Assembly: GCA_902799965.1 (NCBI GenBank)
Contig: CADCCO010000010.1
Span: 1 to 64,000 of the forward strand
Direction of reading: 5' to 3'
DNA: 64,000 bases
Source: an uncultured Spirochaetaceae bacterium
GTDB lineage: Bacteria; Spirochaetota; Spirochaetia; Treponematales; Treponemataceae
Positions 54,887 to 63,686 of the stretch are shown in pieces. The notes under the pieces are model-generated. The model did no database searches and had not been told where the DNA came from. It saw only the letters and a list, made by a program, of their open reading frames with translations. A program made the position numbers and the translations under genes. Numbering within the stretch: position 1 is the first letter of the stretch; the number at the start of each line of letters is the position of its first letter.

Positions 54887-54972
54887 CACTGGCCCAGAAG
54901 CGCGGCAACCAAAACTGGTCACTGACCTAGAAGCGCGGCAACCAAAACTGGTCACTGGCCTAGAAGCGCGGC
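54887..54972 (-). repeat. 33-bp in-frame tandem repeat containing stop codons
   Basis: Units 54887-54919 and 54920-54952 are near-identical (33 bp), and a partial third (54953-54972) is the coding 3' end of the FAD oxidoreductase. On the minus strand each unit reads PVLVAALLGQ followed by TGA, so stops lie in frame at 54954, 54921 and 54888. Confidence 0.85.
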
Positions 54973-56685
54973 GGCGGCGTTTTGGCCGTCCATCGCGCTG
55001 GAAACGATTCCGCCCGACCAGCCGCTTCCTTCGCCGCAAGGGTAAAGGCGGGATAGCCCTAAACATTCAAAAGTCGCTTTGTCGCGCTTTATTCTGACCG
55101 GCGTTGAAGTGCGCGTTTCGCTTGCGATTAAAAGCGCGTCGGGCGAAATGAAGCCCCTCATGTTTTTGTCAAAAGCCTTAAAGCCTTCCTTAAGGCGGCG
55201 CGCGACAAAGGGCGGAAGCCACAAGTCCAAGCGGCTTGGAACCAAGCCCGGTGTGTAGCTGGAACGGGGCAGGGACTCGCTTGGCCGGCCCGCCAAAAAG
55301 TCAACGAGCCGCTGGGCGGGCGCCGCGTTAGGGTTGGATTCAAGGCCAAGACTCGCGCCGCCGTGAAGCCATGTCTCGCGTTCCAGCCAGCGGCGGAAGC
55401 GCAAGCCGGCAAGGGAATCGTTGGCAAGACCAAAATCCGCGCCGCCGGCTTTTTGGTCGGCCGACAATTCCCGCGCGATTTCTTCTATATCCTCCGGCCG
55501 CGTTTCCACGACGATGGCGGCGTTGGACCAAGCGGAGTTGCGCTCGGCGGCGCTCATTCCGTTTACGACAATTTCTTCCGGGCCGCTCGCCGACGGAACG
55601 ACAAAGCCGCCGGGGCACATGCAAAAAGAGTAAACGCCGCGCCCGTCGATTTGCGCGGTCAAGCGGTATTCTGCGGCGCCAAGACCGGCGGCCTGGCGCT
55701 TTCCGTGGAATTGGATTTTGTCTATCAACTCGCGCGGGTGCTCCACGCGCGCTCCGACGGCGAACGTCTTCGCTTCCAACGATTCGGGGCTTGCGCGCGC
55801 TATAATTTCGTAAATGTCAGGCGCGGAATGTCCCGTGGCCAAAATCACCGCGTCGGCAAGGAATTCTTTTTGCGCGCCGTCCGCCGTCCGCGTCACAACG
55901 CCGCGAACGATTTTTGCGCTGGAAGCGTTCGTAAGCCCAAGAGCGGCGTTGTTAGCAAGCCCAAGAGCGGGGGCGCCGCCTCTTTCGCTTTTGGGCTTTC
56001 CTTCGTTCGCTCCGTCAATAATAAAATCCACGACGCGGCTTTCAAAGTGGAACTCTCCGCCCAGCTCCAAAATTTTTTGGCGCATGTTGTTGATGATTTG
56101 CGGAAGCTTGTTCGTTCCGATGTGCGGATGCGCGTCGGTCAAGATTTTTGGGTCGGCGCCAAAGTGAACGAAGGTTTGCAAAACCTCGCCGATGTTTCCG
56201 CGCTTGTCGCTGCGCGTGTAAAGCTTTCCGTCACTAAAAGTTCCGGCCCCGCCTTCGCCAAAACAGTAGTTGCTGTCCGCGTCAACGATTCCCTTTACGC
56301 TTATGGCCGCGATGTCGCGCTTTCGCTCGTTGGTTGGCCGTCCGCGCTCGATGATGATTGGCTTAACGCCGCGCTCCAAAAGTTTTAGGGCGGCAAAAAG
56401 TCCGGCGGGGCCGCTTCCGACCACAACGACTTTTTTTGAGCCGTCCGCTTTGCGCCACGAAAATTCTTTTTGGGCTTGGGCGGGTTTTTCGCCGACGAAC
56501 GCTTTGTAGCGCAGGCAAAATTTCAACTGGCCGTGCCGCGCGTCGATCGATTTTTTTACAAAGACAAATTCGGCTCGCTCTTCGCCCGAATATTTTTGCC
56601 TAAGCGCCGCGTTGAGTTTTTTTTGAATTAAATTTTTGTCGCTTTCTTCTTGCGCCTTTATTACGACGCTCAGGTCAAAAATCAT
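54952..56685 (-). CDS. FAD-dependent oxidoreductase (COG2509-like)
   Basis: 577 aa. An N-terminal domain of about 85 residues precedes the FAD dinucleotide-binding motif VVVGSGPAGLFAALKLLERG. CFGEGGAGTFSDGKLYTR and a late GEGSGWSGGIVSSAMDG are typical of this uncharacterised NAD(FAD)-utilising dehydrogenase family. Substrate unknown. An internal stretch (about residues 215-255) is a low-complexity repeat (ALGLANNAALGLTN). Its last codons are part of a 33-bp tandem repeat. Confidence 0.87.
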   Translation of the reverse strand: MIFDLSVVIKAQEESDKNLIQKKLNAALRQKYSGEERAEFVFVKKSIDARHGQLKFCLRYKAFVGEKPAQAQKEFSWRKADGSKKVVVVGSGPAGLFAALKLLERGVKPIIIERGRPTNERKRDIAAISVKGIVDADSNYCFGEGGAGTFSDGKLYTRSDKRGNIGEVLQTFVHFGADPKILTDAHPHIGTNKLPQIINNMRQKILELGGEFHFESRVVDFIIDGANEGKPKSERGGAPALGLANNAALGLTNASSAKIVRGVVTRTADGAQKEFLADAVILATGHSAPDIYEIIARASPESLEAKTFAVGARVEHPRELIDKIQFHGKRQAAGLGAAEYRLTAQIDGRGVYSFCMCPGGFVVPSASGPEEIVVNGMSAAERNSAWSNAAIVVETRPEDIEEIARELSADQKAGGADFGLANDSLAGLRFRRWLERETWLHGGASLGLESNPNAAPAQRLVDFLAGRPSESLPRSSYTPGLVPSRLDLWLPPFVARRLKEGFKAFDKNMRGFISPDALLIASETRTSTPVRIKRDKATFECLGLSRLYPCGEGSGWSGGIVSSAMDGQNAAAALLGQ

Positions 56686-56691
56686 CGCGCT

Positions 56692-57033
56692 TTAAAAGTT
56701 GCTTCCGTTCCAGCCCCAGTTGGAAGTTCCAAAGTAGCTTACGTAAACCGCGTCGCCCGGAATGCCCAACTGCGCTTGCAGGATTTCGCAAACGCGCGCC
56801 GTCATTTTGCTAGAAGCGCCGGCGTCGACGTTCCCCAAAACTTTTATTTCCACGTAAGCGCCCTTGTCCAATTTTTTTCCGCCAAAATACAAGTCGGCCT
56901 TGTCCGAAAGGTCGATCATAAGATAGCTTTCGGGCTTGTTCAAAAGGCTGATCGCTTTTCCAAATTCGGCCTTGAGAACGTCGCGCTTTTCCTGCGGCAA
57001 CTCCATCGTCACCTTTGCTTGAATCATCGGCAT
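56692..57033 (-). CDS. MIF/tautomerase-superfamily protein
   Basis: 113 aa, the usual length for macrophage migration inhibitory factor homologues. Pro2, the catalytic base after Met removal, is present (MPMIQAKVTM), along with ESYLMIDLSD and a C-terminal GWNGSNF like eukaryotic MIF. Such proteins tautomerise phenylpyruvate-like keto acids; the physiological role in bacteria is unclear. It sits 6 nt upstream of the FAD oxidoreductase start on the same strand. Confidence 0.87.
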   Translation of the reverse strand: MPMIQAKVTMELPQEKRDVLKAEFGKAISLLNKPESYLMIDLSDKADLYFGGKKLDKGAYVEIKVLGNVDAGASSKMTARVCEILQAQLGIPGDAVYVSYFGTSNWGWNGSNF

Positions 57034-57055
57034 AAATAGCTCCTAATAATTTTTC

Positions 57056-57419
57056 TTAAAACTTAATTACTTTTGGCTCGGCGGTGAAACTGGCGAACGT
57101 CGCCGTCGCGTCCTTAAAGTAAAGGACTTGCGTGTTGCCGTCGTTTTCGTCGTACATTCTGCGAAGGTCCGGGTAGTTGTCGAGCATGTGCTTTTTTGCT
57201 TCCACCCGGTCGTCGTTCACAAGCTGGCCCGCCACGCGAAGCCACGTTCCCGCCGCTCCGTCAAAGCAAGAAAGCTCCGCCTTGGGATTGGCCGCGAATG
57301 TAAAGCTTTTCGTCGAACAAGTCGATCGTTCCAAAGGGCCTGACGCGAGGCTGGTCCACGTCCACAGTGGCAAGGTAATACACCCCGCACTTTTTAATGA
57401 AGTCGTAGATTTCGTTCAT
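57056..57419 (-). pseudogene. Pyridoxamine 5'-phosphate oxidase-like protein, frameshifted
   Basis: The 5' part from the ATG at 57419 reads MNEIYDFIKKCGVYYLATVD and RPFGTIDLFDEKLYI, the normal start of this family. It then leaves frame. The 3' part in another frame (from about 57310 to 57056) continues FAANPKAELSCFDGAAG and MYDENDGNTQVLYF. A small deletion of about 28 nt near 57305-57320 explains both the missing residues and the shift. The gene is probably inactive. Confidence 0.75.
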
Positions 57420-57454
57420 GGAATTATATTAGCGCAAGAGGGGAGGCGTGGGCA

Positions 57455-57638: not shown

Positions 57639-60389
57639 ATGTTGTTCTTCTTCTTTTCATTCGCAATTCCAATTATATTTTTCTTGATAATCTTTATTTC
57701 TACAAAAAGACATTGCAAGTCAAAAGAAATAGACACGAAAGAAAAAAATCAAATTAATGATGTGTACTCGACACATAAAGAAGCCATTAACCAATTTTTT
57801 GCTGATTTTGATTGTTTGAAAACTCGTTACATCTCAAAGAAAGGCGAAATGCTTTTTGCTGAAAAATGGCATTGGTTGTACACGGAATTGTCTCGATTTA
57901 ATTTTTTTCGATATACGGATTCATTTGAGAACATAAGGCGTTTTAAAAATACTTTTAAGTCATTAAGCGATTACGTTGAAGAGGCAAATGAATCTTTTGT
58001 TCAGAATGAATCTATCAAATATGACGCTTTGTTTTCTAATATAGACGGCAAGAGCCTTGACGAACAGCAGCGAAGAGCGGTTATTACAGATGAAGACAGA
58101 ATTTTGGTTTTGGCAGGGGCAGGCAGTGGAAAAACTCTTACCATTGCGGCAAAAGTAAAATACTTGACGGAGGTAATGGGCGTAAAGCCGCAAGAAATTC
58201 TTCTTCTTTCTTTTACAAGAAAGTCAGCTCAAGAAATGACGGAGCGAATTCAGGATAAACTTGGAATAAACGCCTCGGCTACTACATTTCATAAGTTAGG
58301 ACTTGAAATAATAAAAAATGCAAATGGAAGATGCCCGAATGTTTTAGATGAAAATGAACTTGTTCAGTTTGTTCATAATTTTTTTGAAAATGAATTGTTA
58401 AACCATCCGAATCTGGTAAAAGACTTAACTGATTATTTTGCCTATTTTCTTGAAATTCCTGATGACATGGAGAGTTATTCTTCTCTCGGCGAGTTGTATG
58501 ATAGTGAAAAAAATGCTGACCTTGAAACCTTAAAATCTAAATACGATAGAGAAAAATATATTTCTGACAAAAGTATTGAGAATGCCAAGCTTCATAAGAC
58601 ATTAAATAATGAAAACGTAAAAAGTCTTGAAGAAACAAAAATCGCAAATTATCTCTTCATGAATGGAATAAAATATGAATATGAAAAGCTTTATCCTTAT
58701 GAAAGCGAAGATTTGTCGAGGAAAAATTATAGGCCAGATTTTTATCTTGTTGATTATGATATTTATTTAGAGCATTTTGGCATTTCAAAGGAATTCACGG
58801 TTCCTTGGCTCTCTTCTGTTGAAGAAAAAAAATATTTGGACGGAATTCAGTGGAAACGTAAATTTCATAAAAAAAACGGCACTAAACTGATTGAAACATA
58901 TTCTTATTATAATTCTGAAGGTGTTTTGTTAAAGCGTCTGGAAGAACTTTTGATAGATAACGGAGTTGAGTTTAAGCCTCGTGATTTTGTGGATATATTT
59001 AACACGGTATATGCGCGAAAAAGCTACAAGTATTTTTCAGAATTTATAAAATTATGTTGTACGTTTATTACGCTTTTTAAGTCGAATAATTATAAAAATG
59101 AGCAGATCGCTGATTTGAGAAAAAAATATTTTTCCGAAGAAAAGAATTTCTTTTTGCGTGAACGTACAACGCTTTTCCTGAATATAATTGAAACAATTCT
59201 TTTAGAGTATGAAGAGTATCTTTCGTTAAATAATGCGATTGACTTTTCGGATATGATAAATCATGCGGCTCAGAGTGTTTGTGAAGGATGTGAAATTCCA
59301 AATTACAAGTATATGATTGTTGACGAATATCAAGACATATCAAAATCACGTTTTAGCCTTCTAAAAGCTATCGCTGACAAAACTGGAGCAAAGCTTTTTT
59401 GCGTTGGCGATGATTGGCAGTCTATTTATAGATTTGCAGGAAGTGACATTTCTTTATTTACGGATTTCGAAAAATATTTTGGTTATACAAAGATTTTAAA
59501 AATCGAAAAGACTTACCGTAATTCTCAGCAGCTAATAGATGAAGCTTCTAGATTTGTTTTGCAGAATCCTATGCAATTGCGAAAAGATTTACGATCTGAC
59601 AAGTTTCTTGATTATCCTCTTGTCTTTTGGGGATATGAGAAAGATCCCCAAAAGACTTTGCGGCAGGTGATAAATAAAATTATTTCTGAGTTTGGCATCA
59701 ATTCGTCAGTGTTGCTTTTAGGACGAACTAATTACGACTGTGAAATTGCAAAAAAATCGGGACTTTTTAAGATTTCTTATAGAAACAGGAAAGAATATTT
59801 TGAATACATTCCAAATCCTGCCTTGCCTGTCAGTTTTATGTCAGCGCATAAATCTAAGGGGTTGGAAGCGGATAATGTCATTATTCTAAATTTTAAAAAC
59901 GATACGCTAGGCTTTCCTAATCAGATTGCAGATGATAATGTGTTAAACCTTGTTTTGACTAACGCGGAAAAATATGATTTTGCCGAAGAACGGCGTTTGT
60001 TTTATGTTGCGATTACACGAACGCGAAACAGAACTTTTGTTTTGACAGATTGCAATAATCCTTCGCCTTTTTTTAAGGAGTTTAAGGAATCTAAGTCGGT
60101 TTGCTATGTTGCTATGAAAGAAGCGGTCGCTGAGGATTGCGTTAATTGTCCTCGTTGTAAGACCGGTCGCTTGCTTAGAATTGAAAATGGCGACAAGAGT
60201 TTTGTTGGTTGCTCAAACTTTCCGAAATGCCGTTATACTCTTAATAATCCTAAGATAATATTGAATCCAATAAAATGTCCCTCATGCGGCGGATTTCTTG
60301 TTCGTCGCTATGATAAAAAACATCACGCGTTTTTAGGCTGCACGAATTATCCGTATTGTGAATATACAAAGAGTTTAAGGCGGGAATAA
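57639..60389 (+). CDS. Membrane-anchored UvrD-like helicase with nuclease insert and zinc ribbons
   Basis: 916 aa. An N-terminal transmembrane helix (about residues 2-24) is followed by a superfamily I helicase: LDEQQRRAV (Q motif), GAGSGKT (about 160), DEYQD (about 560) and EERRLFYVAITRTR (about 782). Between motifs, residues about 330-450 carry NYRPDFYL and IYLEHFG, which fits a PD-(D/E)xK-like nuclease insert. The C-terminus has two C4 topoisomerase-type zinc ribbons (about 833-865 and 879-910). It resembles helicase IV/HelD. Codon use is AT-rich compared with neighbours. TATAAT ends 6 nt before the ATG. Confidence 0.85.
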   Translation: MLFFFFSFAIPIIFFLIIFISTKRHCKSKEIDTKEKNQINDVYSTHKEAINQFFADFDCLKTRYISKKGEMLFAEKWHWLYTELSRFNFFRYTDSFENIRRFKNTFKSLSDYVEEANESFVQNESIKYDALFSNIDGKSLDEQQRRAVITDEDRILVLAGAGSGKTLTIAAKVKYLTEVMGVKPQEILLLSFTRKSAQEMTERIQDKLGINASATTFHKLGLEIIKNANGRCPNVLDENELVQFVHNFFENELLNHPNLVKDLTDYFAYFLEIPDDMESYSSLGELYDSEKNADLETLKSKYDREKYISDKSIENAKLHKTLNNENVKSLEETKIANYLFMNGIKYEYEKLYPYESEDLSRKNYRPDFYLVDYDIYLEHFGISKEFTVPWLSSVEEKKYLDGIQWKRKFHKKNGTKLIETYSYYNSEGVLLKRLEELLIDNGVEFKPRDFVDIFNTVYARKSYKYFSEFIKLCCTFITLFKSNNYKNEQIADLRKKYFSEEKNFFLRERTTLFLNIIETILLEYEEYLSLNNAIDFSDMINHAAQSVCEGCEIPNYKYMIVDEYQDISKSRFSLLKAIADKTGAKLFCVGDDWQSIYRFAGSDISLFTDFEKYFGYTKILKIEKTYRNSQQLIDEASRFVLQNPMQLRKDLRSDKFLDYPLVFWGYEKDPQKTLRQVINKIISEFGINSSVLLLGRTNYDCEIAKKSGLFKISYRNRKEYFEYIPNPALPVSFMSAHKSKGLEADNVIILNFKNDTLGFPNQIADDNVLNLVLTNAEKYDFAEERRLFYVAITRTRNRTFVLTDCNNPSPFFKEFKESKSVCYVAMKEAVAEDCVNCPRCKTGRLLRIENGDKSFVGCSNFPKCRYTLNNPKIILNPIKCPSCGGFLVRRYDKKHHAFLGCTNYPYCEYTKSLRRE

Positions 60390-60407
60390 ATTCCGCGCTT
60401 TATAAAA

Positions 60408-60557
60408 CTACTTATTATTTATCACCAGCGCTCCGATTACGCCGGGAACCCAGCCGCAGCAAGTGAGCAGAGTGACGATGACGATTGAGCCGCAGCCCTT
60501 GTCCAGCACCGCAAGCGGAGGAAAAATTATGCACAGCAAAACGCGACCAAAGCTCAT
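60408..60557 (-). CDS. Pmp3/YqaE-family small membrane protein
   Basis: 49 aa. MSFGRVLLCIIFPPLAVLDK then GCGSIVIVTLLTCCGWVPGV and IGALVI match the UPF0057 pattern of two helices. In yeast and plants Pmp3 affects membrane potential under salt stress. GGGAG lies 6 nt before the ATG at 60557. Base composition is like the core genome, unlike the genes on either side. TATAAT on the minus strand (60673-60668) may be its -10 box, giving a leader of about 100 nt. Confidence 0.8.
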   Translation of the reverse strand: MSFGRVLLCIIFPPLAVLDKGCGSIVIVTLLTCCGWVPGVIGALVINNK

Positions 60558-60700
60558 AAGAAACTCCCGAAGTGTTTTTGTTCACTATTTTTGATATGGA
60601 AAAATGTAGAACTGATATAAAGAATACGATTTACTGCTTTCATAAGATTACGCCTTATGTATTCATTTATTATAGCATGTTTTTATAAAAAAACATAGAC

Positions 60701-61582
60701 TTATCTTCGTAAAAGTATTTGCGACATATAGGCGTTTTTGACCGCTTCGCGCAGCCTAAAGCCAAAATGTGATTTGTTGTATTTTTCCGCTTCTTTTGGG
60801 AACATAACCATGCTTTGATTTGCAATAATGTTGGCTGTATCTCTGGTTTTTTTGTTAACTACAATGGGCATGATTATTCCACATTTTATGTATTCTTTGC
60901 TTTCGGAAAAACAAAAAACACACTGTTCGCAGAAATTTCTTGTAACATAATTCTTTGCATATGGACACGGAATTACGCACCCTCGCCTCATGGGAATTTT
61001 TATTCCGAATCTGGAAAGCGAGTCTTTTCTTTCTGAAATCATTCTTTCATCATCATTGTAAAGAATTTTTATATTTCGCGGATTGAATACGGCGTTTTTG
61101 ACATCTTCTTTAGATTCAAATGTCATTTCTGATAAGTCTATTTCTACCGCTGAAATTTGATGTGCGACGATTTTATGTTGCTTTTCTTCATCGGTTTCGT
61201 GGGTGACTAAAATTTCAACAATAAATGGTCGGCTCTCGCAGGTTGCATATATATCAGGCCTTATGTCTTCCATATATTTTTCTAGCTCTATAGAGTCCGC
61301 TTCATGAAATACTATGGTATTGTTTTTCGGGATGGGTATTCTACTTTCTTCCGCAATTACTTTCTTTGCCAGTAAATGCAAAGCGGTTTGGCTGCACTTT
61401 AGACTGTCGTTTCCGTTTGCATGAGCAAAGTGGTGGTGCTTTATTTTTCCGTTGTTTTTTGCGATTAATTCTCCGCCACAGTCAGCGCAATGACAATTGC
61501 ATTTTGCTCCGTTTGGAACGTCATCAATGTATACTGAGTTTCCCTCAGCGTTTATGGCTAATAACATATATTGCTTTTTCAT
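60701..61582 (-). CDS. CoiA-like nuclease-domain protein
   Basis: 293 aa. The N-terminus has a zinc-type cluster (CNCHCADCGGELIAKNNG) and HHHFAHANG, as in competence protein CoiA. RPDIYATCESRPFIVEILVT gives the Asp and Glu of a PD-(D/E)xK-like nuclease core, though the usual Lys/Gln after Glu is not evident. A second Cys cluster (CVIPCPYAK, CEQCVFC) lies near residues 190-225. The ATG directly abuts the RNase III stop (TAAATG), so the two are one operon. AT-rich. The target is unknown. Confidence 0.75.
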   Translation of the reverse strand: MKKQYMLLAINAEGNSVYIDDVPNGAKCNCHCADCGGELIAKNNGKIKHHHFAHANGNDSLKCSQTALHLLAKKVIAEESRIPIPKNNTIVFHEADSIELEKYMEDIRPDIYATCESRPFIVEILVTHETDEEKQHKIVAHQISAVEIDLSEMTFESKEDVKNAVFNPRNIKILYNDDERMISERKDSLSRFGIKIPMRRGCVIPCPYAKNYVTRNFCEQCVFCFSESKEYIKCGIIMPIVVNKKTRDTANIIANQSMVMFPKEAEKYNKSHFGFRLREAVKNAYMSQILLRR

Positions 61583-62737
61583 TTATTTTTTCTCCCAATT
61601 TTCAAAGTTCTTATGAAACCTCTTTTCCGCTTCCGCTTTTTGCTCATCTGTCCAGAGAACGCATCCACCACTGAAACGCATAATTGGCCTTGGTTTTTCG
61701 GCTTTTTCTATTTTTGTCTCAACAATATAGCGCAACAGTTTTAGCGAAGCGTCTTGTTTGACCTGCTTTTTAGAAACGTTGTCGGCGGAAAACTCTCCGT
61801 ATCCCTCTAAGAACGCTTTGCAGTTCCAAATCGGGTTTCCGTTTTCGTCATGATATTCGTTAAACTCATATCTAACTTCCATTATGACTTTTTTTTGGAA
61901 TAGTTCATGCAGAGCGCTTGCGGGATTGTCATAGTCAATATTTTCAAATTTTCGTTTTATTTCCTCTTGACACAAAAATCTATAAGCTTTTCCGTCTGCG
62001 TCCAATTTTGCTTGCAAGACACCGTCTCCAATGCCCATAAAGTAATTGCCGCCAATGTTTACATAGTATTCACATTTGCTGGTTTTAGGATTTTTGGGGG
62101 TTCCAAATGCGTCAACTACAAGGTATTGGTCGTAAAGGTTATAAGGCTGCATATCACTCATGTTTTGAAGTTGGTATGACATCGGTGTGTATTCTGGTTC
62201 TCCAAAACCAAGGGCGTTTGATTTTTCCGCTACGAGAACTGCAAGATAGTTGTTGATGGTTTCAAATTGGAGCATTGTGTCGCACAACTTCTCCAATGTG
62301 TCGTAATTCCAATTGCAATCCGCCGCGACCGCGCCAACAATAGCTTCAAACAAATCCTCGTTTACAGAGATTGAATTTTGAACGTTATTTTCTATGTCAC
62401 TTTTTCCTAAGTATAGAAATTGTGAAAATCCAAAATTGCGCATGCAACGAGCTAGGCTTTCTTTGCTTACTATGATTGACTTTAATTTTGTAAGTTCTCC
62501 TTCGTTTTTTTCAGAAACTAGTTCGTTGTTTATGATTTTTGAAAATTTTTTGTACATTTTTTTTGTAACAAAAAAATCTAAAATCTCGTCGCCATAGAAT
62601 TCCAAAACTTCATTGTTTTGCGCTTCTGGATGCTCTGCAGAATAAGATTTGCGAGTGAATGCTTGGTCCAGCAATCTTAAATTCTTAAATTGATATTGAA
62701 TTCCGATTTGAACGTAATCAATAGCCAACCTATCCAT
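61583..62737 (-). CDS. RNase III-type endonuclease with two dsRNA-binding domains
   Basis: 384 aa, far longer than the usual 220-250 of bacterial RNase III. The nuclease domain keeps all catalytic acids: NNEVLEFYGDEILDF (Glu43, Glu46, Asp50) and NEDLFEAIVGAV (Asp128, Glu131). A dsRNA-binding domain follows at about 275-345 (VSKKQVKQDASLKLL). A second, more divergent one seems to precede it at about 195-265 (MGIGDGVLQAKLDADGKAYR). GGAGG lies 5 nt before the ATG at 62737. AT-rich composition marks it as a likely accessory gene, not the housekeeping rnc. Confidence 0.83.
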   Translation of the reverse strand: MDRLAIDYVQIGIQYQFKNLRLLDQAFTRKSYSAEHPEAQNNEVLEFYGDEILDFFVTKKMYKKFSKIINNELVSEKNEGELTKLKSIIVSKESLARCMRNFGFSQFLYLGKSDIENNVQNSISVNEDLFEAIVGAVAADCNWNYDTLEKLCDTMLQFETINNYLAVLVAEKSNALGFGEPEYTPMSYQLQNMSDMQPYNLYDQYLVVDAFGTPKNPKTSKCEYYVNIGGNYFMGIGDGVLQAKLDADGKAYRFLCQEEIKRKFENIDYDNPASALHELFQKKVIMEVRYEFNEYHDENGNPIWNCKAFLEGYGEFSADNVSKKQVKQDASLKLLRYIVETKIEKAEKPRPIMRFSGGCVLWTDEQKAEAEKRFHKNFENWEKK

Positions 62738-62792
62738 AATTCCTCCTTTTGCTCGTAAGGACATAGTAACCCCCGTAGCAGGAAAATTTAAA

Positions 62793-62918
62793 ATGTGGTG
62801 GCATTATTTTAAGAAAACAGAAAACAAGTGGACTAACACTATTTTGAATGCTGCGCTTAACTTGCATCAAGTCACGACATTCCTAGCAATGTTAGACAAT
62901 CATTTTTTGAATCCCTAA
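62793..62918 (+). CDS. Possible small protein, divergent from the RNase III operon
   Basis: 41 codons (MWWHYFKKTENKWTNTILNA and further), with AGGA about 9 nt upstream. It resembles no family I know. The stretch 62738-62999 holds no other gene, and this frame could be a remnant or chance ORF. Confidence 0.25.
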   Translation: MWWHYFKKTENKWTNTILNAALNLHQVTTFLAMLDNHFLNP

Positions 62919-62999: not shown

Positions 63000-63686
63000 A
63001 TGGACTACAGCTACATTTTTTCTTCCGCAAAACCGATAAAAGAAAAGTTCGCGGACTTTGGATTTAAAAAGCGCGGCGCATCTTATGTTTGCAAAAAGAC
63101 TATTGCGGGCGGCGACTTTTACGCGACGCTTGCAATTTGCGGAGAAACTTTGACGGCGCAAGTTTACGACGCGGCGACGGACGAACTTTACGCGCCCTTT
63201 GACATGCGCGGCGCCCGCGGCGCTTTTGTTGCAGCCGTCAGGGAAGAAGTTCAAAAAATCGTAGACGATTTTTGCGAGCGCTGCTTTGAGTCGGAAGACA
63301 TTCACAAAAAATACTTTGACTTTATCGAGCGCCAGTTTAATTGCAAGGCGGACTTTCCGTGGGCGCAAGAAGAAGGCGCGGCCAAGCGCTATTCAGACGC
63401 GGCGGTTTTCCGCTGCCCCAACCAAAAATGGTTTGCGCTTGTGATGGAAATCTCTTACAAAAATCTTGGACTTGCGAGCGACAAAAAAGTTTTTACGGTG
63501 AACCTAAAGGCCGACCCGGAGCGCGTCGCGGACCTTGTGGACAAGAAAACGATTTTTCCCGCCTACCATATGAACAAAAAACATTGGATAACGGTTTTGC
63601 TTACAAGCGCGACGGACTTTTATCTTTTGCGCTCGCTCACGGAACAAAGCCGCGTCTTGGTGATGGGGAAGGGCCGCTCTTCTTAG
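63000..63686 (+). CDS. MmcQ/YjbR-family protein
   Basis: 228 aa. The C-terminal half (about residues 115-215) matches MmcQ/YjbR: VFRCPNQKWFALVMEI, VNLKADPERVADLV and FPAYHMNKKHWITVLL. The N-terminal half is an extra domain seen in Clostridial and treponemal members. The fold resembles CyaY and has been called DNA-binding-like, but function is unknown. TATACT (62987-62992) ends 7 nt before the ATG, so a leaderless mRNA is likely. Confidence 0.8.
   Translation: MDYSYIFSSAKPIKEKFADFGFKKRGASYVCKKTIAGGDFYATLAICGETLTAQVYDAATDELYAPFDMRGARGAFVAAVREEVQKIVDDFCERCFESEDIHKKYFDFIERQFNCKADFPWAQEEGAAKRYSDAAVFRCPNQKWFALVMEISYKNLGLASDKKVFTVNLKADPERVADLVDKKTIFPAYHMNKKHWITVLLTSATDFYLLRSLTEQSRVLVMGKGRSS

What the first reader, a model, noticed from the sequence alone, without database searches (positions are those of the whole stretch)
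57639..62737. AT-rich helicase-nuclease plus RNase III/CoiA-like operon: possible nucleic-acid defence or processing island
A membrane-anchored UvrD-like helicase with a nuclease insert, a CoiA-like zinc/nuclease protein and an accessory RNase III with extra dsRNA-binding domains lie within 5 kb. All three are more AT-rich than the surrounding genes. The RNase III and CoiA-like genes are joined as TAAATG. An enzyme for dsRNA next to an enzyme likely to act on DNA is not a combination I know as a described defence system. A native-composition pmp3 gene interrupts the set, so helicase and RNase III operon may be separate acquisitions.
Basis: partly seen in the sequence, partly recalled or inferred. 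Interest (0 to 1): 0.68.

Follow-up and report, generated by a model that had tools for sequence, protein, structure and literature searches.

The report
RNase III with swappable nuclease partners
Gut and rumen treponemes carry a mobile gene pair in which a spare double-stranded-RNA-cutting enzyme is joined to a second nuclease that different species have repeatedly exchanged for unrelated ones; this looks like an undescribed defence-type module, although its function has not been tested.

Summary
Window 57639-62737 carries a helicase-IV-like gene, a Pmp3 gene of native GC, and a CoiA-like gene joined as TAAATG to a second RNase III; GC is 34-38% against 51% for the rest of the window. Following the pair outward changed the picture. 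The RNase III belongs to an accessory family separate from housekeeping rnc, with an intact active site and two dsRNA-binding domains, found patchily (I estimate about a quarter of 200 genus genomes). Its next gene overlaps it or lies within about 25 bp, and differs between species: CoiA-like PD-(D/E)XK nuclease (21 loci), HNH protein (6), NYN or PIN (3); two more sit 100-137 bp before type I hsdM. CoiA is also preceded by an unrelated zinc-finger protein (6 loci). The HNH label changes at least five times on well-supported branches, and one swap is seen in place between matching flanks. The helicase is a separate insertion at the same hotspot. Best reading: a mobile nucleic-acid conflict (probably anti-phage) module with a constant dsRNA enzyme and interchangeable effectors. 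Shown: conservation, linkage, partner exchange, mobility. Inferred: defence, mechanism. A general defence-gene enrichment test was inconclusive.

The parts
61583..62737 (-). Accessory RNase III, 384 aa from ATG at 62737 behind an AAAGGAGGAATT ribosome site; RNase III domain (about residues 1-160) and two dsRBDs (about 165-263 and 272-340), plus a C-terminal tail
   Evidence: Pfam/NCBIfam; AF2 model pLDDT 86; Foldseek to RNase III structures; active-site residues E43, E46, D50, D128, E131 conserved in alignment A7
60701..61582 (-). CoiA-like PD-(D/E)XK nuclease, 293 aa, start directly adjoining the RNase III stop (TAAATG)
   Evidence: CoiA_N weak; invariant Cys cluster, HHFAH, PD...E..VTH..D..K motifs; AF2 pLDDT 87 and PD-(D/E)XK structural matches
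60408..60557 (-). Pmp3 (proteolipid) gene, 49 aa, native GC; its DNA is kept at the site between the two variable slots in the relatives
   Evidence: PF01679 1.3e-10; matching DNA in G035, G068, G191 and, at another locus, G030
57639..60389 (+). Helicase-IV-like SF1 helicase with insert and two C-terminal zinc ribbons; separate variable-slot gene, not part of the RNase III operon
   Evidence: replaced by a 40%-identical helicase in G068 and by a Mokosh-like helicase in G035 at the same site
62738..62827 (-). Leader of the RNase III operon; part of a leader shared by this gene family, diverged here at the ribosome site
   Evidence: alignment A3; motif search
54952..57420 (-). Conserved left flank of the hotspot: FAD dehydrogenase-like gene, MIF-family gene, pyridoxamine-oxidase-like reading frame (frameshifted in the window)
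63000..63686 (+). Conserved right flank of the hotspot: YjbR-family gene

Best explanation
A mobile two-gene module that acts against foreign nucleic acids. The constant part is an accessory RNase III with intact active-site residues and two dsRNA-binding domains, which most likely recognises and cuts double-stranded or structured RNA made during phage or plasmid activity. The second gene, translated directly after it, supplies an effector nuclease. In the window this is a CoiA-like PD-(D/E)XK enzyme expected to cut DNA; in other species the same place is taken by an HNH, NYN or PIN protein, and two relatives sit just before a type I methylase gene. Exchange of the effector behind a constant core suggests selection for diversity, as in defence and other conflict systems. 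Shown: conserved operon, intact active-site residues, two dsRBDs, partner exchange, patchy and mobile distribution, a hotspot shared with helicases of defence type. Inferred: that the two proteins act together, that RNA is the trigger, and that phages or plasmids are the target.
For: RNase III followed within -25 to +18 bp by CoiA-like genes at 21 loci of the genus, by HNH genes at 6, and within 25 bp by NYN/PIN at 3; hsdM follows after 100-137 bp at 2. Accessory RNase III is separated from rnc by a fully supported branch; the HNH label needs at least 5 changes forced by starred branches (quick tree). In-place swap: G133 and G102 share flank, leader and RNase III (91-96% DNA) and the sequence after the partner, but one has CoiA and the other HNH. 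G068 (HNH) and G105 (CoiA) likewise share site and RNase III. The window's Pmp3-CoiA block is 97.7% identical to G035, whose outer flanks are mostly 81-87% and whose first gene is a zinc-finger protein instead of RNase III. Type I RM genes next to the module, AbiD nearby. Co-location with Mokosh-like and helicase-IV-like genes above chance by a rough Poisson estimate, P about 0.0015 and 0.004 after removing query genomes.
Against: No functional data. PADLOC has no model for either protein of the pair above noise. The PADLOC comparison of 117 neighbours with 120 random proteins was inconclusive (166 against 75 models hit; type I methylases in both). Some accessory RNase III genes stand alone at conserved sites beside deoD, or beside a 154-aa gene, which suits a housekeeping or domesticated role in those lineages.
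Confidence: 0.55

Rival explanations
1. Toxin-antitoxin-like module with control at the RNA level: the partner nuclease is a toxin and the RNase III keeps it silent by cutting the shared transcript; loss of RNase III activity during infection releases the toxin.
For: Partners are nuclease or toxin folds (CoiA, HNH, NYN, PIN; SymE in one clostridial contig). RNA-level control would let one RNase III serve unrelated partners. A leader with the ribosome site next to a complementary stretch is specific to this gene family (13 of 14 motif matches in 196 genomes lie upstream of accessory RNase III or at a contig end).
Against: RNAalifold finds no conserved structure in the leader; the window's own leader lacks the motif; several RNase III genes have no partner at all; CoiA is also found without RNase III.
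Confidence: 0.17
2. The RNase III and its neighbours are maintenance genes of mobile elements: RNase III processes element or antisense RNAs, and the nucleases serve transfer or recombination rather than defence.
For: Clostridial relatives sit directly behind a tandem pair of large serine recombinases; one relative is on a Ruminococcus albus plasmid; CoiA is known from transformation (established knowledge).
Against: In treponemes no recombinase was recognised beside the pair in the loci inspected; partner exchange between unrelated nucleases is not expected of a fixed processing role.
Confidence: 0.15
3. Chance neighbours: two accessory genes that travel in the same variable region without functional link.
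For: Both genes lie in hotspots and both exist without the other.
Against: Overlap or spacing under about 25 bp in the same order and strand at 21 CoiA loci across a divergent family, and unrelated partner types in exactly the same position.
Confidence: 0.06

Closest known systems
Bacterial housekeeping RNase III (rnc, TIGR02191)
   Same: RNase III domain, conserved active-site residues, dsRBD fold; matches TIGR02191 at 123 bits
   Different: Below that model's 166-bit cut-off, two dsRBDs instead of one, a fully supported separate branch, present beside a normal rnc, patchy and mobile
CoiA-like / competence CoiA family (CoiA_N, PF25164)
   Same: N-terminal cysteine and HHFAH region and a PD-(D/E)XK-type core
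   Different: The window protein is below the Pfam cut-off (20.5 against 26.3 bits); genetic setting is an RNase III or zinc-finger operon, not a competence regulon
Predicted HEPN-RNase III-dsRBD 'two-headed RNases' of cyanobacteria (PMC3710099)
   Same: RNase III plus dsRBD coupled to a second nuclease and proposed for conflict or defence
   Different: There a fusion with HEPN; here separate, exchangeable genes of other nuclease folds
Type I restriction-modification operons
   Same: Several RNase III (-CoiA) genes lie directly before hsdM
   Different: RNase III is not a known RM subunit; most loci have no RM genes adjacent
Mokosh (MkoA) and helicase IV families, for the neighbouring helicases
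   Same: G035 helicase matches MkoA at 1e-50; window helicase matches helicase IV at 355 bits
   Different: Both only partly match or fall under the curated cut-off; neighbours in the hotspot, not members of the pair

Membership tests
Housekeeping RNase III (rnc equivalog TIGR02191) | Score over the curated equivalog cut-off | tested here: not met
   123.4 bits against 166.25; separate canonical rnc in contig C9
RNase III superfamily | RNase III fold with the conserved acidic active-site residues | tested here: met
   PF14622/PF00636 over cut-off; conserved residues; structural matches
CoiA family | CoiA_N domain over the curated cut-off | tested here: not met
   Window protein 20.5 against 26.3 bits; some relatives pass (27.0 and 30.8 bits)
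PD-(D/E)XK nuclease superfamily (CoiA-like gene) | PD-(D/E)XK core fold and motif | tested here: met
   The top VIA-align rows are mostly PD-(D/E)XK nucleases (best Z 7.3 to VRR_NUC; single Z values are modest, the agreement of rows counts); motif conserved
PADLOC-listed anti-phage systems (release 2.0.0) | A model for the pair's proteins | tested here: not met
   No match for CoiA; only a noise-level RT_UG4 match for RNase III
Helicase IV (NF008276) | Score over the curated cut-off | tested here: not met
   355 against 543 bits
Defence system (any) | Measured protection against phage or plasmid | not testable with these tools
   needs an experiment
Defence system (any) | Enrichment beside known defence genes | tested here: inconclusive
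   PADLOC counts of 117 neighbours against 120 random proteins; helicase co-location above chance in a rough estimate

The most novel reading that the evidence does not exclude
A new class of bacterial immunity in which an RNase III with two dsRNA-binding domains acts as the sensor of foreign double-stranded RNA and licenses an interchangeable effector nuclease (PD-(D/E)XK, HNH, NYN or PIN), functionally parallel to Dicer-like sensing but without guide RNAs.
Probability: 0.25. Interest if true: 0.88.

Novelty: new variant of a known kind. Interest (0 to 1): 0.6.

Why it matters
RNase III is usually thought of as a housekeeping RNA processor in bacteria. A mobile, accessory RNase III that keeps its catalytic residues while its neighbouring nuclease is exchanged among unrelated folds points to an unrecognised role of dsRNA cleavage in conflicts with phages or plasmids. 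It gives a concrete set of pairs, including natural in-place swaps, with which the question whether bacteria sense foreign dsRNA this way can be tested directly.

Tried and rejected
Helicase plus RNase III as one system: rejected, the helicase slot varies independently and most helicase copies lie far from any RNase III. Integron cassette: an attC-like reading of 62850-62900 was considered by eye only; no repeated element was found in the region. Leader as a conserved RNA structure: RNAalifold gave none. Leader as a dispersed repeat: rejected, 13 of 14 matches lie upstream of accessory RNase III or at a contig end. C-terminal tail of RNase III changing with the partner: true for G133/G102, not for G068/G105. 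PADLOC neighbourhood enrichment: inconclusive. Phage origin: no CoiA or zinc-finger match in phage records; RNase III matches there are short and confined to the N-terminal half; the HNH partner matches phage HNH genes only over its N-terminal third. Literature searches for RNase III or CoiA in defence found no matching system; two CoiA hits with 'phage defense' that were opened were an author's name.

Full report
Observation. The helicase runs 57639-60389 (+), the CoiA-like gene 60701-61582 (-), the RNase III 61583-62737 (-). RNase III and CoiA are joined as TAAATG. GC is 0.34, 0.37 and 0.38 against 0.51 for the rest of the window, and the lowest-GC 5-kb stretch of the window lies here. A Pmp3 gene of GC about 0.52 lies between. 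The genome has its own rnc on another contig and a further accessory RNase III on a third contig.

What the proteins are. The RNase III model (pLDDT 86) shows an RNase III domain followed by two dsRNA-binding domains. The acidic residues that form the RNase III active site are conserved throughout the family alignment, so it is probably an active enzyme. It scores below the curated cut-off for housekeeping RNase III. The CoiA-like protein carries an invariant cysteine and HHFAH region and a PD...E..VTH..D..K motif, and its model (pLDDT 87) matches mostly PD-(D/E)XK nucleases, among them VRR_NUC, Hjc and McrBC. The single Z values are modest (best 7.3); the agreement of the rows is what persuades. 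The helicase is closest to helicase IV but below that family's cut-off.

The pair elsewhere. A search of 84,980 species genomes with the CoiA alignment gave 21 loci, nearly all named as Spirochaetota, at the top of the list (L055-L075). Of these, 13 have the accessory RNase III directly upstream, 6 have an unrelated 281-306-aa zinc-finger protein there, and two have neither. More distant CoiA relatives in other phyla have neither partner. Searching 200 genomes of the genus with an RNase III profile found matches in 57 at 1e-25; the weakest of these look like ordinary rnc, so I estimate about 48 genomes with the accessory type. Outside the genus, only 4 genomes of a phylum-wide draw of 393 had it.

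Partner exchange. I fetched the flanks of these genes and listed the next gene downstream. At 21 genus loci it is CoiA-like (two of them with broken RNase III), at 6 an HNH_3 protein, at 1 a NYN-LOTUS protein, at 2 a PIN7-like protein, all overlapping or within about 25 bp. At 2 loci a type I hsdM gene follows after 100-137 bp, and at one locus and a near copy a 297-aa protein of no known family follows after 30 bp. The accessory genes are separated from canonical rnc by a fully supported branch, and the HNH label needs at least five changes on starred branches; this is a quick tree with some long branches. The clearest case is G133 against G102: upstream flank, leader and RNase III are 91-96% identical, the sequence departs about 30 codons before the RNase III stop, the partner is CoiA in one and HNH in the other, and identity resumes right after the partner. 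G068 (HNH) and G105 (CoiA) show the same kind of exchange at the window's own chromosomal site.

The hotspot. In the window's close relatives the stretch between the FAD/MIF/oxidase genes and YjbR holds two variable slots separated by Pmp3. Slot one holds the window's helicase, a 40%-identical helicase in G068 (its two sides lie on separate contigs), a Mokosh-like SF1 helicase with a DUF2726 nuclease-like domain in G035, or a small gene in L060. Slot two holds RNase III-CoiA (window, G191, G105), RNase III-HNH (G068, G172) or zinc finger-CoiA (G035, L060). The Pmp3-CoiA block of window and G035 is 97.7% identical over 1,192 bases while the outer flanks are mostly 81-87%, which points to recent exchange between species. 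The helicase is therefore a neighbour, not a component.

Defence or not. Adjacent type I RM genes, AbiD and Mokosh-like helicases suggest defence, and a CoiA relative on a Treponema bryantii plasmid lies next to methyltransferase and helicase genes that look like a type III RM pair. A controlled comparison was weaker: of 117 neighbours against 120 proteins of random loci, 166 against 75 PADLOC models were hit, but type I methylases appear in both, so I call it inconclusive. Co-location within 10 kb with the two helicase families exceeds a rough Poisson expectation (P about 0.0015 and 0.004 after removing query genomes). No paper found in the library describes an RNase III-CoiA or RNase III-HNH defence system; the nearest is the prediction of HEPN-RNase III-dsRBD fusions (PMC3710099).

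Mechanism. The best reading is a mobile conflict module: the RNase III recognises and cuts foreign or abnormal dsRNA, the partner nuclease is the effector, and effectors are exchanged under selection. That the proteins cooperate, and what triggers them, is inference. A toxin-antitoxin-like arrangement in which RNase III silences the partner's transcript remains possible; the family-specific leader motif near the ribosome site would fit, but no conserved RNA structure was found and the window's leader has diverged. A role in mobile-element maintenance is suggested by clostridial relatives placed directly after paired serine recombinases.

Limits. Most genomes are fragmented metagenome assemblies; gene calls are simple longest-frame calls; the phylogeny is a quick search; counts of loci include near relatives and are not independent events. 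Function is untested.

Noticed in passing
L144, L145, L148-L156 (IMG/VR contigs): Relatives of the same two-dsRBD RNase III lie directly after, or close behind, large serine recombinase genes (usually a tandem pair), one of them overlapping a SymE-like gene. This looks like recurrent cargo of recombinase-borne elements.
   Followed up: partly
G000 contig C134:4122-5138 (L052): The window's genome carries a second accessory RNase III, overlapping a 147-aa gene and about 430 bp behind a PIN-toxin-like gene.
   Followed up: partly
window 57056-57420: The pyridoxamine-oxidase-like gene appears frameshifted in the window by a deletion of about 35-37 bases relative to G035; it could be a pseudogene or an assembly error.
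   Followed up: no
upstream of accessory RNase III genes, e.g. L219:6189-6278: A leader motif (TTGTGCCTAAATTTAnTTTTAGGAG) is shared by strongly diverged RNase III genes and essentially confined to them; the ribosome site lies beside a complementary stretch.
   Followed up: partly
L048, L049, L235, L236, L247: A stand-alone accessory RNase III keeps the same place beside deoD and a glucosidase gene in several species, as if domesticated (in L247 the contig ends before deoD).
   Followed up: no
L060:6933-7802: Mosaic CoiA: the first 180 bases or so are 96-99% identical to the window, then identity falls to about 40%, marking a recombination point inside the gene.
   Followed up: partly
NC_014824.1:76931-78451 (Ruminococcus albus plasmid pRUMAL01): A distant accessory RNase III on a mobilizable plasmid, near VWA-domain and PP2C phosphatase genes.
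   Followed up: no
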